Assembly (NCBI RefSeq): GCF_012910805.1
Contig: NZ_WTVK01000025.1
Coordinates: 1 to 64,000 of the forward strand
Origin: Aromatoleum evansii
GTDB lineage: Bacteria > Pseudomonadota > Gammaproteobacteria > Burkholderiales > Rhodocyclaceae
Length of the DNA stretch: 64,000 bases
Reading direction: 5' to 3'
The notes below the pieces were generated by a model. It was given only the letters and a program-made list of their open reading frames with translations. It made no database searches and was not told the DNA's origin. Below are positions 53,885-59,725 of this stretch, one piece after another; positions within the stretch are counted from its first letter, which is position 1; every line of letters begins with the position of its first letter. The position numbers and the translations under genes were made by a program.

Positions 53885-54065
53885 GCAGGACGCACTCCGC
53901 CGGGAACGATGTCACGAACGCCTCCATCTGGCACTTTCCCATGTCACGGCGATGGTGCAGGCTCCAAAACATCTTGTATCGTCTGATCTTAACGTGGTAC
54001 GCCATTCCGGTATGCATGCTGTGATGCTTCAACCGAAGCGTTCATGCTCGAGTGCGAGCAGCATC
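53885..54065 (-). pseudogene. Integron integrase (IntI) relic, N-terminal part
   Basis: The minus strand reads TLRLKHHSMHTGMAYHVK, IRRYKMFWSLHHRRDMGK and QMEAFVTSF in one frame. These align with the IntI N-terminus (consensus-like TIRLKHYSIRTEQAYVHW, IRRFILFHGKRHPRDMGK, EVEAFLTHL). A stop (TGA) precedes the segment and the catalytic C-terminal domain is gone, replaced by the neighbouring operon's terminator. It lies left of and divergent from the cassette array, the normal intI position. The integrase cannot be functional. Confidence 0.75.
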
Positions 54066-54194
54066 GGGGCCCGGGGGCGACGGACATGGGAGAGGAGGAG
54101 TTTCACACGATCTCTGACACTATGACATATACGAGTTGAAATGCCCCTTGCAAAACATTGGCTTGTCAGTGGGCGACAGGATATTCGCGCTGTC

Positions 54195-54241
54195 CGATAA
54201 CACTTCTATCTCGACGCTTGGTGTCGATCAAAACGTTAGCG
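54195..54241 (+). other. attI-like or first cassette junction
   Basis: CGATAAC ... CGTTAGC flanks a small hairpin (TCGAC/GTCGA at 54211-54227). GTTAGC (54235-54240) fits the GTTRRRY core where cassettes join, immediately before the first cassette gene. Position next to the intI relic supports attI; a short attC is the alternative. Confidence 0.5.
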
Positions 54242-54254
54242 CAAGAGGGTCATC

Positions 54255-54644
54255 ATGGACGTAATTGCATCTTTGCAGTCCGCAATCGATATTGTTTCAA
54301 AGCTCCGCGATCTCTCGAAGAAACTTGAAAATGCGGATTTCAAGATGCTGCTCGCTGATCTCTCTATGGAACTATCCGATGCAAAGCTTGAAATGGCGAA
54401 CTTAAAGGTAATGTTGGCTACGACGATCGAAGAAAATGAAAAGCTGAAGAGCTCATTGAATCAAAGAAGTTCGGCCAAGCCTAAGCTCGTTGATGGTGCC
54501 TATTCATTTGAGGGTGAGGATGGAGCATTTTGCACGGCATGTTGGGATACAAAGCAACAACAGGTTCGCGTCACTGAGCAGTCCGGAGCGTTTCGTCGCT
54601 TCGGGAAGTGGCGATGTCCATCGTGCCAAGCCGCATTTGGTTGA
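54255..54644 (+). CDS. Cassette gene: coiled-coil protein with C-terminal zinc ribbon
   Basis: 129 residues. Residues 1-70 are heptad-like and predicted coiled coil (IVSKLRDLSKKLENADFK and following). Cys93, Cys96, Cys121 and Cys124 (FCTACW and CPSCQ) form a likely zinc ribbon. No named family recognised. First gene after the intI relic, clearly lower in GC than the flanking operons. Its 3' side begins like an attC (GGCGTAACAACCGCTTGC from 54648) but no matching right core was found in the 157 bp before the next gene. Confidence 0.7.
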   Translation: MDVIASLQSAIDIVSKLRDLSKKLENADFKMLLADLSMELSDAKLEMANLKVMLATTIEENEKLKSSLNQRSSAKPKLVDGAYSFEGEDGAFCTACWDTKQQQVRVTEQSGAFRRFGKWRCPSCQAAFG

Positions 54645-54801
54645 AAGGGCGTAACAACCGCTTGCAGCCGACCGGCCGAGTATCGAAGGCATCCTGGACG
54701 TCCGCCGGACCAAATCTCGACAGTGAGTTCTATGTGACATGCCTCTGCTGCGGAGGGCGTCAGCACGACAACTACAATTGGATTCGCATTTGAGGTAAGC
54801 C

Positions 54802-55440
54802 ATGACAGATAAAACGCATTTGTGCATTAGCCTCTCGCCTGGGGCAGTCCAGTTCATGAATACGCAGTTGCTGACCATACCTTCCGGAACGGTTGATTTC
54901 CCATTTCCGGACTACGTCATCACCTTGCGCCTCGATCGCGCCATTATGGGCGACCAGAATTGTAGACTCGATCATCTTGGGTCGCGGGATGAAACGCGTA
55001 CCAAGATGGCCTTTACGTTTCCCTCCGACCTTCTACATGAAGATGTCACTCGGATCGTGAACCTTGCATACGAGGAGGCACTGAGGTGCTTTGAACGGAA
55101 TTGCTCGATGGCTGCAATCGGTATGTGTGGGCGCACAATCGAAACGGTCCTCGCGGCGTTCTACGCGAAACAGTTTGGGAAGCACCCGTCTGAAGAACAA
55201 AATCCTCCCGGTGTCAACGCAATGATCAACAGGCTTCGGAAGGAAGGGTATCGATTTCCCGCAGGCCTTAAGGAACGAATGGAAGTGATCGCGCTACATC
55301 GCAATATGGCCATTCACGGCAATATCGTACTCCCGAGCCAAGACGAAGCGCGAAGCACCATTTATTTGACCAAGGACGTACTGCAACTGGTTTCTCAAGG
55401 CGACACTAACGAGGCCGCTGGAAACGAATCTGTACGCTAA
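54802..55440 (+). CDS. Cassette gene: DUF4145-like protein
   Basis: 212 residues. The central segment LAYEEALRCFERNCSMAAIGMCGRTIETVL and the later VIALHRNMAIHGN resemble DUF4145 and related helical domains, which occur alone or in defence-associated proteins. The N-terminal 70 residues are unrecognised. The stop codon lies inside an attC left core (GCTAAC), as is usual for cassette genes. An IS1111-type element follows 7 bp later. Confidence 0.7.
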   Translation: MTDKTHLCISLSPGAVQFMNTQLLTIPSGTVDFPFPDYVITLRLDRAIMGDQNCRLDHLGSRDETRTKMAFTFPSDLLHEDVTRIVNLAYEEALRCFERNCSMAAIGMCGRTIETVLAAFYAKQFGKHPSEEQNPPGVNAMINRLRKEGYRFPAGLKERMEVIALHRNMAIHGNIVLPSQDEARSTIYLTKDVLQLVSQGDTNEAAGNESVR

Positions 55441-55447
55441 CCCATCA

Positions 55448-56425
55448 TATATGGACTCCCCCGGAAGGCAAGGAAACTGAGCGATTTTTCTGGCCGTAGG
55501 GAAACGCATGCAGTCGTATATCCGGCATCTGGTGTGGACTCTGAGTGGTCCGTGCCGACATGGAATCTGCCCACGGTGCGCCAATCGATGCAAGCGGCAC
55601 GCGTGAAGCTGCCGGCAGAGTTATCGGCGTCAATCCGTGTGGGTGCGACCCGGTTTGCCATGATGGGCGATCAGTCTCGGTGCAAGCGTGGGACGGGAAC
55701 AGCGGAAACAACAACGGCAGCAGACTTATCCACGGCGGCGCGCGCGTGGCGCCTCTCACGCAGGCGCGCGTGCCGCGGTGGATAAGTCGTGTTCATGGCG
55801 CGGTCCTCAGGCCGCCACGGCGAACGCGGTGCGTTCGAGTTTCTTCATCGGGCGCGGTTGCGGCTCGCCGAATGGCGTGCCGTCGCGCAGGCAGGCGTAG
55901 CAGATGCGCGCGAGCTTGTTGGCGAGCGCACAGGCGTATATGGACTCCCCCGGAAGGCAAGGAAACTGAGCGATTTTTCTGGCCGTAGGGAAACGCATGC
56001 AGTCGTATATCCGGCATCTGGTGTGGACTCTGAGTGGTCCGTGCCGACATGGAATCTGCCCACGGTGCGCCAATCGATGCAAGCGGCACGCGTGAAGCTG
56101 CCGGCAGAGTTATCGGCGTCAATCCGTGTGGGTGCGACCCGGTTTGCCATGATGGGCGATCAGTCTCGGTGCAAGCGTGGGACGGGAACAGCGGAAACAA
56201 CAACGGCAGCAGACTTATCCACGGCGGCGCGCGCGTGGCGCCTCTCACGCAGGCGCGCGTGCCGCGGTGGATAAGTCGTGTTCATGGCGCGGTCCTCAGG
56301 CCGCCACGGCGAACGCGGTGCGTTCGAGTTTCTTCATCGGGCGCGGTTGCGGCTCGCCGAATGGCGTGCCGTCGCGCAGGCAGGCGTAGCAGATGCGCGC
56401 GAGCTTGTTGGCGAGCGCACAGGCG
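55448..56425. repeat. 489-bp tandem direct duplication of the IS left end
   Basis: 55448-55936 is repeated at 55937-56425 with no difference noticed. Each unit holds the left terminal repeat, a non-coding stretch with the inverted repeat GGCGCGCGCGTGGCGCC-like palindromic region, and the last 40 or so codons of the transposase. The first unit is therefore a truncated transposase tail; the second joins the complete gene. Confidence 0.9.
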
Positions 56426-57381
56426 GCCTTGTTGTGATTGCTCCGCGCTTCGACGTTCGTGATCCAGGCACGCAGGCCGTCGAGTTGGCGGCCGGCCTGG
56501 CGCGCCAGTGTCGCGCTTCGGAGTACTGCCCGTGCCCCGTGCGTGAGCAGCATCCGCAGATAGCGGTCGCCGCGCTTCGAGATGCGCCCAAGCCGGCGCG
56601 TGCTGCCCGACGAGTATTCCTTCGGCGTCAGCCCGAACCAGCTCGCGAAATGCCGTGCGTCCTTGAAGTGCGTGACCTTGCCGCTGGTGGCAGCGACCAT
56701 CGCCGTCGCGGTCAAGAGGCCAATCCCCGGGATCGACAGCAACAGCTTGCAGGCGGCGCTTTCGCGCGCGAGCGCGGCAAGTTCCTTCTCCAGATCCGCA
56801 ATGCGTTGCTCGAGCAGGCGGATCTCTTCAACGAGCAAGTGCATCGAGCCGCGCACCAACAACGGCACCGGCGAGTGAGGGTCGGCGAGCACGCGGCTGA
56901 TCGCCTCGATGCCCGTGCGCGCGCCCTGCGGAATCATCAGCCCGAACTCGCGGCAGAAGCCGCGCAGCGCGTTGATACGCGAGGTGCGCGTGGTCATCCA
57001 CAACGAGCGGATGCGATGAAGGCTCTGCAGCGCCTGTTGCTCGACGGATTTGATGCGCACCGGTTCGATGTCGGCGCAGCGCGCCGCTTCGAGCAACGCG
57101 CAGGCGTCGGCGGCATCGGTCTTGTTGCGCTTCACATAGGCCCGGATGTAGCCCGCCGGCAACAGGCGCGCCTCGATGCCGAGCCCCGCCAGCCAGCGTG
57201 CCCAGTGGTGCGCCGAGCCGCAAGCTTCCATGATCACCAGATCCACCTGGCGGTTCTGGAACCAGCGTTCAAACTGCAATCGGGTCAGCCGATGCTGCTC
57301 GACGACTTTCCACTTGTCATCGGCAACGGCAATCTGGAATACACTCTTGGCAAGATCAACGGCAACGGTAGTAGCATGCAT
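56296..57381 (-). CDS. IS110-family (IS1111 group) DEDD transposase
   Basis: 361 residues from ATG 57381 (MHATTVAVDLAKS). Acidic catalytic residues lie in AVDLAKS, IMEACGSAHHW and KTDAADACAL. The C-terminal Tnp20 part has LLSIPGIGLLTATAMVA, ASWFGLTPKEYSSGS and GRISKRGDRYLR, with the serine needed for catalysis. It appears intact, so the element may still be mobile. It runs opposite to the cassette genes. Confidence 0.93.
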   Translation of the reverse strand: MHATTVAVDLAKSVFQIAVADDKWKVVEQHRLTRLQFERWFQNRQVDLVIMEACGSAHHWARWLAGLGIEARLLPAGYIRAYVKRNKTDAADACALLEAARCADIEPVRIKSVEQQALQSLHRIRSLWMTTRTSRINALRGFCREFGLMIPQGARTGIEAISRVLADPHSPVPLLVRGSMHLLVEEIRLLEQRIADLEKELAALARESAACKLLLSIPGIGLLTATAMVAATSGKVTHFKDARHFASWFGLTPKEYSSGSTRRLGRISKRGDRYLRMLLTHGARAVLRSATLARQAGRQLDGLRAWITNVEARSNHNKAACALANKLARICYACLRDGTPFGEPQPRPMKKLERTAFAVAA

Positions 57382-57474
57382 TTCGGACTCCTCTCGTCGA
57401 TGACCGATCCCCATCCCCATGAGCACCGGTGGCGCCTATTCGGCGCCGAAAAGACGGGGGAGTCCATCCCATCA

Positions 57475-57530
57475 ATGCACCGGACAGTCAAAAGCTGCGC
57501 TTTTGCCGCCCGGAGATTTCCACGTTAGAT
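57475..57530 (+). other. attC right part (interrupted by the IS)
   Basis: ATGCACCGGACAGT-CAAAAGC-TGC-GCTTTTG-CCGCCCGGAGATTTCCACGTTAGAT, described in parts. The CAAAAGC/GCTTTTG hairpin is the variable terminal structure and GTTAGAT (57524-57530) the right core. The left core GCTAAC is at 55436-55441, on the other side of the IS. Confidence 0.75.
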
Positions 57531-57564
57531 TTTTCTGAACCTCATTTCGGGAGACATCAACGTC

Positions 57565-58233
57565 ATGGATCAGCGAGAATTGCAGGAAATGGAGGAGAAT
57601 CGCCAACGCTGGCTGCGCGTCGATGAAATAATTGAATCCCACGTACCCGTCCTCGCTAGGAAGTACAAGCAATGTGTATATATCAATGCCTACGGCATCG
57701 AAGTCTGCGACGCATGGGACAAGGAGGCTGCTACCTTCATCCGCACAGTAGTCGCTCAAGATATCCCTGCCTCATGGCTCGACGCCAATCGAAACCGAAT
57801 CATCAAGGAAATAACAGCCAGAACCAAGTTCTGCACCGCATTTGAGGCCGCCGAGCCACTATTGGGCGAGGCTGACGTTACCACTCTCTCCCCCACAGAG
57901 TTCGAACTAATGGTTGTCGATCTTCTCAACCAATTTGGGTGGTATGCACATCCGACATCGACGACAGGTGATCAAGGCATTGACATAATTGCGTCGCTGA
58001 ATGGAAAGAGAGCGGTCTTTCAGTGCAAACTCTATAGCCAAGCAGTCGGGAATACAGCAGTACAAGAAATCATCGCTGGACGCGATTTTGAGAAAGCCGA
58101 TATGGTATCTAACGCCAACTACACACCCTCAGCTCGACAGCTTGCCTCCGCCGCCGGCGTTTACCTGTTGCACCATACGGAGGTTTCTTCATTTGCCGAA
58201 AAGGTACGGCTCGCCACTAATGCAAAGAAGTAA
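57565..58233 (+). CDS. Cassette gene: Mrr-like restriction endonuclease
   Basis: 222 residues. The C-terminal half (about 105-200) is an Mrr-type PD-(D/E)xK nuclease: SPTEFELMVVDLLNQFGW, then TGDQGIDII with Asp140, then FQCKLYSQ giving Gln153 and Lys155, the QxK variant of the Mrr family. The N-terminal 100 residues are unrecognised. Mrr nucleases cut modified DNA; in a cassette it may be a solitary defence gene. ATG 57565 follows the attC by 35 bp. Confidence 0.8.
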   Translation: MDQRELQEMEENRQRWLRVDEIIESHVPVLARKYKQCVYINAYGIEVCDAWDKEAATFIRTVVAQDIPASWLDANRNRIIKEITARTKFCTAFEAAEPLLGEADVTTLSPTEFELMVVDLLNQFGWYAHPTSTTGDQGIDIIASLNGKRAVFQCKLYSQAVGNTAVQEIIAGRDFEKADMVSNANYTPSARQLASAAGVYLLHHTEVSSFAEKVRLATNAKK

Positions 58234-58290
58234 CATGATGGTCATCCGACCTGTGCGAAAACCCGCAGGTCGGTCATCTACACCTTTGAA
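58230..58290 (+). other. attC-like site after the Mrr-like cassette (degenerate)
   Basis: Starts GTAACATGATGG inside the gene's stop region, has the strong stem CCGACCTG (58247-58254) / CAGGTCGG (58265-58272) and ends CACCTTTGAA, a poor match to GTTRRRY. Its centre GACCTGTGCGAAAA is shared with the site at 60262-60322. Confidence 0.5.
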
Positions 58291-58311
58291 TGAAAAGCAA
58301 AGGAGAAGCAA

Positions 58312-58902
58312 GTGCTCGACGATCTTCTCTGGCAAGAACTCGAAATCATCAAGTCGTTTTATGCTCGTGCTCTGTCTTGGGCCGCGACAGAGACAGCCTC
58401 TCAGAGCGCTGGGCTAGCGGGAGCCGATGAGGAAACTATCGAGCAAGTCGTCGTTCATCCGCACAGCCCGTACAACTTTGAACAGATTGTGATTCGTTCT
58501 GTCATCAATGAATTGAACGCGCTTTGTGAGTTTTCTCTGCAAAACGTTTGGCGAGCGATAGAGGGGGAGGTTCTTCCTTCGGGGGAACTCGTCTTCACGG
58601 CCTCCAGAGGTTCAATTGAGCAGGCGCTTCTCGACCGGCAGATTGTCGTGAAAGATTGGCCGCGCTGGCTGGACGTTTTGAAGCTCAAAGAACTCTCAGA
58701 AGGATTCAAGCATCGGCAGCGAATGCAACCATTTCCTATTGAACTTCAAAAACGTGGACTTGAATGGCGTGCTGAACGGCTCGTTGAGCCCCAGAATACC
58801 GCCTGGCTTGCACCTTACGAATTGAAAACCGCGCATGCGACTGAGGGTATCTCAGCAGTGGAGGAACTACTTCATTGGTTGCGTATGCAATATGCAATCT
58901 AA
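58312..58902 (+). CDS. Cassette gene: hypothetical protein
   Basis: 196 residues from GTG 58312, preceded by AAAGGAGAAGC. Mostly helical, acidic, no membrane segment, no Cys-rich or catalytic motif that I recognise. Its stop region overlaps an attC left core (TCTAACC), as for true cassettes. Confidence 0.65.
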   Translation: MLDDLLWQELEIIKSFYARALSWAATETASQSAGLAGADEETIEQVVVHPHSPYNFEQIVIRSVINELNALCEFSLQNVWRAIEGEVLPSGELVFTASRGSIEQALLDRQIVVKDWPRWLDVLKLKELSEGFKHRQRMQPFPIELQKRGLEWRAERLVEPQNTAWLAPYELKTAHATEGISAVEELLHWLRMQYAI

Positions 58903-58989
58903 CCAATTAGTCGAGGGGACAGCAAGAAGCGATGCTTTTGGTTCTCTCCGCGCTTCGCGCTCCGGCTGCCCCTGACTTCTACGTTGGGC
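58898..58989 (+). other. attC site (59-be-like, about 92 bp)
   Basis: Left core TCTAACC, followed by GTCGAGGGGAC. The centre includes GCGCTTCGCGC. The right side GCCCCTGACTTCTACGTTGGGC ends in the core GTTGGGC (58983-58989). The GGGG/CCCC arms pair. The next gene starts 8 bp later. Confidence 0.8.
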
Positions 58990-58996
58990 TTTTATC

Positions 58997-59725
58997 ATGG
59001 TTCCCGATGACTTTCGCTTCGTAGCCCACATTGACATCCTCGGGATGTCCTCAATCGTGGAGCGGGATGCAGACGCTGCATGGGGAATGCTTTCCGAGCT
59101 GGCCGCCGTCCGTGACCACGCACAAGACTTCGAGTTGGAATTTCTCGATACTAAGGAGCGCTTGCACATCCGAGAAGCGGTGTACGCCGTCACGTTCTCC
59201 GACACGATCGTTCTATTTACCAAGGTGGGCTCGGACACAGAGCTACGCTGCATGATCGTTTTGGTGGCGGAAATACTTCACAAGGCAATGTGTCGTTGCG
59301 TTCCGGTACGAGCTGGCCTGGCGTTCGGAAAGTTCTATTTCAACCTGGATCGGTCCATGTATGCGGGTCCAGCGCTGATCGAAGCATATCGCGTTGGAGA
59401 GTCCGCTCAATGGATTGGAATTACGCTTGCCGATTCAGTTCGAGAAAAGGCCGCAAATCTTCAAATGACGAGTGGCAGTCGTGACGTTATTGTTGATTGG
59501 GATGTGCCCATAAAGTGCGGGATAATACGCCGCAGCGTGGTCAACTGGCCGGCCGTATTCGCTCATGACCTTGCCGTCGCGCCACCTATTTGCATACAGC
59601 AGTTCTATCAAGGATTCGAAAACACCTTTGGCGCCTACTCAAAATTACCGCCGGAGGCGCAGGAAAAATACGTCAATACGGTGGAGTTCATAAATGCGCA
59701 ACGCATACGTCATCATCAAGCCTAA
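58997..59725 (+). CDS. Cassette gene: nucleotidyl-cyclase-like domain protein
   Basis: 242 residues. The pattern resembles class III cyclase homology domains: HIDILGMSSIVERD with Asp13, FSDTIVLFT with Asp69 (the two metal-binding aspartates), then VPVRAGLAFG, and GPALIEAYRVGESAQWIGITLADSV, which matches the G..VN.AARL helix. No receptor or transmembrane part is fused. Similar small cyclase-like proteins act in anti-phage signalling (Pycsar), but the substrate residues cannot be assigned here. Catalytic activity is uncertain. Confidence 0.6.
   Translation: MVPDDFRFVAHIDILGMSSIVERDADAAWGMLSELAAVRDHAQDFELEFLDTKERLHIREAVYAVTFSDTIVLFTKVGSDTELRCMIVLVAEILHKAMCRCVPVRAGLAFGKFYFNLDRSMYAGPALIEAYRVGESAQWIGITLADSVREKAANLQMTSGSRDVIVDWDVPIKCGIIRRSVVNWPAVFAHDLAVAPPICIQQFYQGFENTFGAYSKLPPEAQEKYVNTVEFINAQRIRHHQA

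What the first reader, a model, noticed from the sequence alone, without database searches (positions are those of the whole stretch)
55436..57530. IS1111-type element inserted in an attC and carrying a 489-bp tandem duplication
The attC is split between GCTAACCCATCA and ATGCACCGG, with CCCATCA on both sides. This fits the known IS1111-attC preference. The left IS end, including the transposase 3' end, is duplicated head to tail, which could be an intermediate of circle formation or one-ended transposition, or a replication error.
Basis: partly seen in the sequence, partly recalled or inferred. Interest (0 to 1): 0.6.

Follow-up and report, generated by a model that had tools for sequence, protein, structure and literature searches.

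The report
Insertion sequence with a doubled tail
A small jumping gene that lands in integron attachment sites carries an exact second copy of its tail, which by comparison holds its guide-RNA gene; similar tail copies in a few other bacteria suggest its own enzyme, not chance, makes them.

Summary
A perfect 489-bp head-to-tail duplication (55448-55936 / 55937-56425) lies in an IS1111-type element inserted in an integron attC. In the element's own orientation (minus strand) the doubled part is its RIGHT end: the last 130 bp of the transposase gene, the downstream non-coding region and the tip. In IS1111 elements that region encodes the target-finding seekRNA (PMC11187229). The two CCCATCA are not a target duplication: one is the element's 7-bp extension (TGATGGG in 80 of 91 left ends), the other is attC sequence. 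A 96.9% identical element in Azoarcus sp. Aa7 has one right end.

It is not unique. Of 205 distinct right-end junctions, 4 run straight from the tip into IS sequence: the window, Uliginosibacterium, Methyloversatilis, and a remnant whose second piece resembles a different relative. All 4 continue with CG (1.5e-4 by chance; 1.1e-3 without the window), the commonest start at ordinary insertions (109 of 201). In a self-comparison control 3 of 5 tandem duplications broke exactly at the tip. I read this as transposase-made joining of the right tip to an internal CG, not a circle junction. Raw reads were not available.

The parts
55436..55447 (+). left fragment of the interrupted attC (GCTAACCCATCA)
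   Evidence: sequence; flanks joined
57475..57530 (+). rest of the attC, up to GTTAGAT
   Evidence: sequence
55448..55936 (-). distal copy of the duplicated right end (next to the attC): tnp tail 55807-55936, non-coding region, sTIR 55451-55462, 3-bp tip 55448-55450
55937..56425 (-). proximal copy of the same 489 bp, 100% identical, continuous with the complete transposase gene; its tip is joined to the internal CG that opens the distal copy
56296..57426 (-). IS110/IS1111-type DEDD transposase, 376 aa as the mechanical ORF; likely true start ATG near 57381
   Evidence: start choice inferred from the ISPa25 protein
57456..57467 (-). left-end subterminal inverted repeat
   Evidence: sequence
57468..57474 (-). 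7-bp left-end extension TGATGGG (CCCATCA on +), part of the IS
   Evidence: same 7 bases in 80 of 91 left ends
55937..56186 (-). conserved non-coding region, putative seekRNA gene, proximal copy
   Evidence: alignment of 30 relatives and consensus fold; function by comparison with PMC11187229
55448..55697 (-). putative seekRNA gene, distal copy
   Evidence: identical to the proximal copy
55723..55788 (.). palindrome (24-nt arms, 92% complementary) between tnp stop and the conserved region; second copy at 56212-56277

Best explanation
This is a member of the IS1111 elements that insert in attC sites, and its transposase has made a rearrangement at its own right tip. Shown: the right tip is joined without loss or gain to an internal position of the element that begins with CG, so that a complete 1538-bp element is followed head to tail by its last 489 bp. 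Inferred: the transposase, carrying its guide RNA, cut at the right tip and joined it to an internal CG of a second copy (the sister copy, or a newly copied element), using CG as the core dinucleotide that it also meets at most attC targets. This needs either one step between sister copies, or insertion into a resident copy followed by RecA deletion between the long 5' repeats; the end product is the same. Inferred: the product has two right tips and two guide-RNA genes. Only the outer tip is still flanked by attC sequence, which the seekRNA work found necessary on both sides for ISEc11, so the movable form is predicted to be the 2027-bp double-tail version.
For: Tip-exact breakpoints: of 207 right-end-anchored regions (-1600 to +600) compared with themselves, 5 held an adjacent, at least 99% identical tandem duplication inside the element, and 3 of these (window 489 bp, L029 440 bp, L047 280 bp) break exactly at the tip. 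A simple binomial with +-2 bp tolerance gives 3.4e-7, or 6.3e-5 with the window, which prompted the search, left out (2 of 4). A fourth junction (L154) joins a right tip to a 36-bp right-end piece that differs from it at 7 of 36 bases; the first piece is 35/36 like L304 and L233, the second 34/36 like L043 and L235, so two different elements most likely met. All 4 junctions continue with CG, against internal CG frequencies of 8.3-13.5%: product 1.5e-4, 1.1e-3 without the window. 109 of 201 ordinary right flanks start CG and 193 of 201 have G second. In the window the CG cannot come from its own attC, which starts TG. In 30 aligned relatives the consensus fold leaves GATAAC (26 of 30, first G paired) and CTTGnAnCGAT unpaired; CG is at the same place of the second in 28 of 30. 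The L029 case has a matching exit contig that starts with the right end followed by attC. Circle formation by IS4321/IS5075 is abundant, with indels at 1.7% of junctions (PMC5001619, section read).
Against: Only 4 cases, one of them heterologous; the statistics are simple and were chosen after seeing the pattern. The internal sites do not resemble the attC target beyond CG: rank p 0.12-0.42 for the right half, 0.53-0.69 for the left half; nor the left end (0.20-0.83) (for L154 a proxy element, L043, was used). In L029 and L047 the attC flank itself starts CGAA or CG, so 2-4 bp of microhomology exist there and CG is not independent evidence in those two. L029 is one of the 2 of 30 whose putative guide loop reads TG, not CG, yet its junction is CG. 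Two other tandem duplications (L055, 99 bp in tnp; L236, 87 bp in the non-coding region) are not at the tip. No uncollapsed IS-in-IS insertion was seen: 0 of 88 left-end flanks adjoin IS-internal sequence (two chance 16-bp matches, not adjacent).
Confidence: 0.62

Rival explanations
1. Same product by two distinct steps: an IS circle inserted whole into a resident copy at an internal CG, then RecA deleted the roughly 1-kb direct repeat of the 5' part, leaving the doubled right end. (A sub-case of the best explanation; listed because it predicts nested intermediates.)
For: L154 shows the tip of one element inside the right end of what looks like another. The 5' repeats (1049 bp here) are longer than the 3' repeats (489 bp), so collapse towards a doubled right end is expected.
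Against: No intact nested element and no left end preceded by IS-internal sequence in 88 flanks; 4 of 205 against 0 of 88 is too few to show an asymmetry. Internal sites lack the target sequence that guided insertion should need.
Confidence: 0.25
2. Ordinary tandem duplication by replication slippage or end joining, unrelated to transposition.
For: Two non-tip tandem duplications exist in relatives (L055, L236); L029 and L047 have 4 and 2 bp of possible microhomology.
Against: No microhomology in the window; 3 of 5 breakpoints exactly at the tip; L154 most likely joins two different elements.
Confidence: 0.1
3. Assembly artefact: the genome has one right end, or an unplaced minicircle supplied the junction.
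For: Draft assembly of 330 contigs; raw reads not available.
Against: Assemblers tend to collapse, not expand, perfect repeats (general knowledge); no other copy was found in the assembly to be mis-joined (40 of 141 candidates scored); the junction partners share no overlap; independent cases in other assemblies, one with 2 differences in 280 bp between copies.
Confidence: 0.1

Closest known systems
ISPa25 (IS1111-attC)
   Same: Same right tip, a 7-bp left extension differing at one base (TGATGGA), same place in attC (cgacttgttag after the tip), downstream non-coding region with blocks in common by eye.
   Different: Transposase only 47.8% identical; the one copy looked at shows a single right end.
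ISKpn4, ISPa21 and an unnamed Stutzerimonas element (L283)
   Same: IS1111 type. [quoted passage not shown]
   Different: Transposases 43.6-44.9% identical to the window's; other left extensions; one right end in the copies looked at. The ISPa21 copy looked at (L280) does not have an attC-like right flank. ISPst6 itself was not compared.
One-ended transposition of IS801/IS91
   Same: One true end used with an internal short motif in place of the other end (PMC3189936, passages).
   Different: IS801 is an IS91-family rolling-circle element (HUH type recalled) that gives separate fragments; here the product is a head-to-tail doubling in place.
IS110-family bridge RNA recombination (IS621)
   Same: DEDD recombinase with a guide RNA and a core dinucleotide included in target and donor pairing (PMC11208160, passages).
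   Different: In the IS110 group the RNA is mostly in the left end and the IS621 core is CT; here the RNA region is in the right end and the core is inferred to be CG.

Membership tests
IS1111 family | DEDD transposase with PF01548 and PF02371 | tested here: met
   both above the curated cut-offs
IS1111 family | subterminal inverted repeats with 7-bp and 3-bp outer extensions | tested here: met
   ATGGACTCCCCC / GGGGGAGTCCAT, extensions TGATGGG and ATA, shared by relatives
IS1111 family | long non-coding region downstream of tnp that encodes a seekRNA | tested here: inconclusive
   region present and conserved (64% mean column identity over 30), 39 consensus pairs of which 9 show a two-sided change, but the covariation term is small (-1.07) and no shuffled control was run; no RNA data; no Rfam match up to E = 1
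IS1111-attC group | insertion at a fixed place in attC | tested here: met
   window; relatives: GTT at +7 in 162 of 201 flanks, strict core motif in 178 of 201 (control 47 of 1021), widened motif in 191 of 201 (control 124 of 1021)
IS1111-attC group | no target-site duplication | tested here: met
   the window alone matches TGATGGG 7 of 7; the 201 flanks match it at a median of 4 of 7
circle intermediate | right tip joined to left end | tested here: not met
   junction is right tip to internal tnp sequence
known double-right-end IS1111 elements | previously described example | tested here: inconclusive
   none recognised in the listings of full-text searches, which cover open-licence papers only; one key subscription paper is not held

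The most novel reading that the evidence does not exclude
RNA-guided IS1111 transposases repeatedly turn on their own element, joining the right tip to an internal CG core. This makes double-tail elements that carry two copies of the guide-RNA gene and move as a larger unit. The spare guide copy could then diverge, giving a natural route by which such elements acquire new targets.
Probability: 0.3. Interest if true: 0.65.

Novelty: new variant of a known kind. Interest (0 to 1): 0.42.

Why it matters
How guide RNAs of IS110/IS1111 elements change target is open, and the seekRNA and bridge-RNA papers propose these enzymes as programmable recombinases. A recurrent tip-to-internal-CG product points to an off-target reaction that leans on the core dinucleotide, and to a duplication route for the guide gene. 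Both are directly testable.

Tried and rejected
Target-site duplication as the meaning of CCCATCA: rejected. Guided insertion at an attC-like internal site: not supported by position-weight ranks. Internal site as a pseudo left end: not supported. L112 (two right ends 2264 bp apart): two separate elements. L223 and L224 (right ends about 1.9-2.0 kb apart): taken as separate elements, not examined further. L016, L098 and L198: extra right ends, not tip-to-internal. Repeats not counted as tandem duplications: L098, L104, L198, L205, L223 (two rows), L281. L055 and L236 were counted as tandem but not at the tip. Rfam search of 54000-59000: no match. Plasmid search with the whole element: 46 records match, none over 80% of it. 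E. coli search with a stretch beside ISKpn4 hit the qacL cassette in the query, not the IS, and was dropped. The scan for an integrase on the 80-kb contig used two short motifs only and found none; the attC scan in the same script returned nothing and was replaced by a core-site listing. One search was meant to draw other genomes by a completeness limit, but 33 of its 44 genomes with a match had already matched. G708 and G832 appear to be one genome under two handles; L154 and L216 share the junction and were counted once. The attC-like motif was widened between (134 of 155; 191 of 201); both versions and a control are. Right ends with 2-3 mismatches were kept only if the conserved upstream block was present; 2 of 207 right ends had under 20 bp of flank and were left out, giving 205. 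The large searches scored only 2 candidates per genome and drew genomes from larger groups, searches scored at most 20 and 17, and not every place they listed was fetched, so 4 of 205 is not a rate for all such elements. Structure prediction was not used.

Full report
What is there. The window holds an IS1111-type element at 55448-57474, transposase on the minus strand. Read in its own direction it starts with TGATGGG and the subterminal repeat ATGGACTCCCCC, then the transposase gene, a non-coding region, the repeat GGGGGAGTCCAT and the tip ATA. The last 489 bp are present twice, head to tail and identical. The doubled block begins exactly at the tip and reaches 130 bp into the transposase gene. 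One complete element is therefore followed by a second right end.

The site. The element splits an attC between two cassettes; one encodes a 212-aa protein with a sub-threshold DUF4145 match (54802-55440; 22.4 bits, cut-off 23.1), the other an Mrr-type nuclease (57565-58233, 62.4 bits). Joining the flanks gives a 71-nt attC-like site. Relatives insert at the same place: of 201 right flanks not followed by IS sequence, GTT starts at +7 in 162, a strict attC core motif is in 178 and a widened one in 191, against 12, 47 and 124 of 1021 control positions 60-300 bp further on. The first two bases are CG in 109, TG in 46, GG in 32, AG in 6 and others in 8 of 201. The 7-bp left extension is TGATGGG in 80 of 91 left ends whatever the target, so the second CCCATCA belongs to the IS. 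The window is the only one of 201 in which the attC flank matches it 7 of 7; 7 flanks match at 6.

Single-tail relative. Azoarcus sp. Aa7 (L003) carries a 96.9% identical element with one right end, also beside an attC core. No second full copy was found in the window's assembly (40 of 141 candidates scored). Of four named or plasmid-borne comparison transposases, ISPa25 is nearest, 47.8% identical.

Recurrence. The transposase search found 100 relatives and kept 79 loci from named genomes. Searches of whole genomes with the right end and fetched stretches brought the set to 323 overlapping loci, which gave 205 distinct right-end junctions with at least 20 bp of flank. Four run directly into IS sequence: the window; Uliginosibacterium sp. 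31-16 (L029, 440-bp spacing, contig ends 77 bp into the second copy, and another contig starts with the right end plus attC); Methyloversatilis universalis EHg5 (L047, 280-bp unit, 278 of 280 identical); and L154, where a right tip abuts a 36-bp right-end piece. In L154 the two pieces agree at 29 of 36 bases, and each is closer to other elements (35/36 and 34/36) than to the other, so they most likely come from two different elements. Left ends: 0 of 88 flanks adjoin IS-internal sequence. The sampling is uneven and capped, so 4 of 205 is not a population rate.

Control. I compared 207 right-end-anchored regions with themselves. Five hold an adjacent, near-perfect tandem duplication inside the element; in three a breakpoint is exactly at the tip; two (L055, L236) are elsewhere. 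With breakpoints placed at random this has a probability near 3e-7, or 6e-5 without the window. The test is a simple binomial, set up after the pattern was seen, on few cases. Other repeats in the output were separate elements, distant or diverged repeats, and were not counted.

The junction. All four continue with CG, product of background frequencies 1.5e-4, or 1.1e-3 without the window. For L029 and L047 the attC flank also begins with CG, so this is weaker there; in the window it begins with TG, so the CG is internal. Beyond CG the internal sites look neither like attC nor like the left end. In the aligned non-coding region of 30 relatives, two conserved and mostly unpaired stretches, GATAAC and CTTGnAnCGAT, resemble the two guide matches expected in the IS1111 order (PMC11187229 passages). 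CG sits in the second in 28 of 30; L029 is one of the 2 with TG, which counts against a strict guide-core rule. The guide assignment is by eye and untested.

Mechanism. The tip-exact breakpoint, the CG, the absence of microhomology in the window and the L154 case point to the transposase. It appears to have joined the right tip to an internal CG of another copy. One-step joining between sisters and whole insertion followed by collapse give the same product and are not resolved here. It is not a circle junction, which would join right tip to left end.

Consequence (inferred). The element carries two putative guide-RNA genes and two right tips. [quoted passage not shown] the inner tip lacks it, so the 2027-bp form should be the mobile one. 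I saw no genome with this form at two places.

Literature seen: PMC11187229 (abstract, passages, two sections), PMC11208160 (passages), PMC5001619 (passages, one section), PMC3189936 (passages). Tetu and Holmes 2008 and Post and Hall 2009 are known to me only through reference lists; the former is not held and the latter was not looked up. No description of doubled right ends was recognised in the listings, which cover open-licence papers only; most of the listed papers were not opened.

Noticed in passing
window 55723-55788 and 56212-56277: A palindrome (arms beginning GACTTATCCAC) sits between tnp stop and the conserved region in the window and, by eye, in L003. 51 of 69 full relatives are 1438-1481 bp long against 1538 here, so it may be missing from most; this was not tested directly. 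One 82% copy lies elsewhere in the genome (C298:22714-22784).
   Followed up: partly
L154 1620-1691 (same junction as L216): Right tip of one IS abutting a 36-bp right-end remnant that resembles a different relative, itself in an attC.
   Followed up: yes
L027 3600-4700 (Parasulfuritortus cantonensis): About 1.1 kb, by eye another transposase gene, separates the IS1111 transposase gene from its non-coding region and right end.
   Followed up: no
L236 and L055: Perfect 87-bp tandem repeat in the non-coding region (L236) and a 99-bp repeat inside tnp (L055), neither at the tip.
   Followed up: partly
L112 1370-5090: Two near-identical copies of a related IS in neighbouring attC sites of one array, in a genome of the window's genus.
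   Followed up: no
window 57565-58233: Cassette gene for an Mrr-type restriction endonuclease directly after the interrupted attC.
   Followed up: no
window contig C177, 1-80440: Cassette array with no integrase found on the contig by a two-motif scan; possibly a cassette cluster without its integrase.
   Followed up: partly
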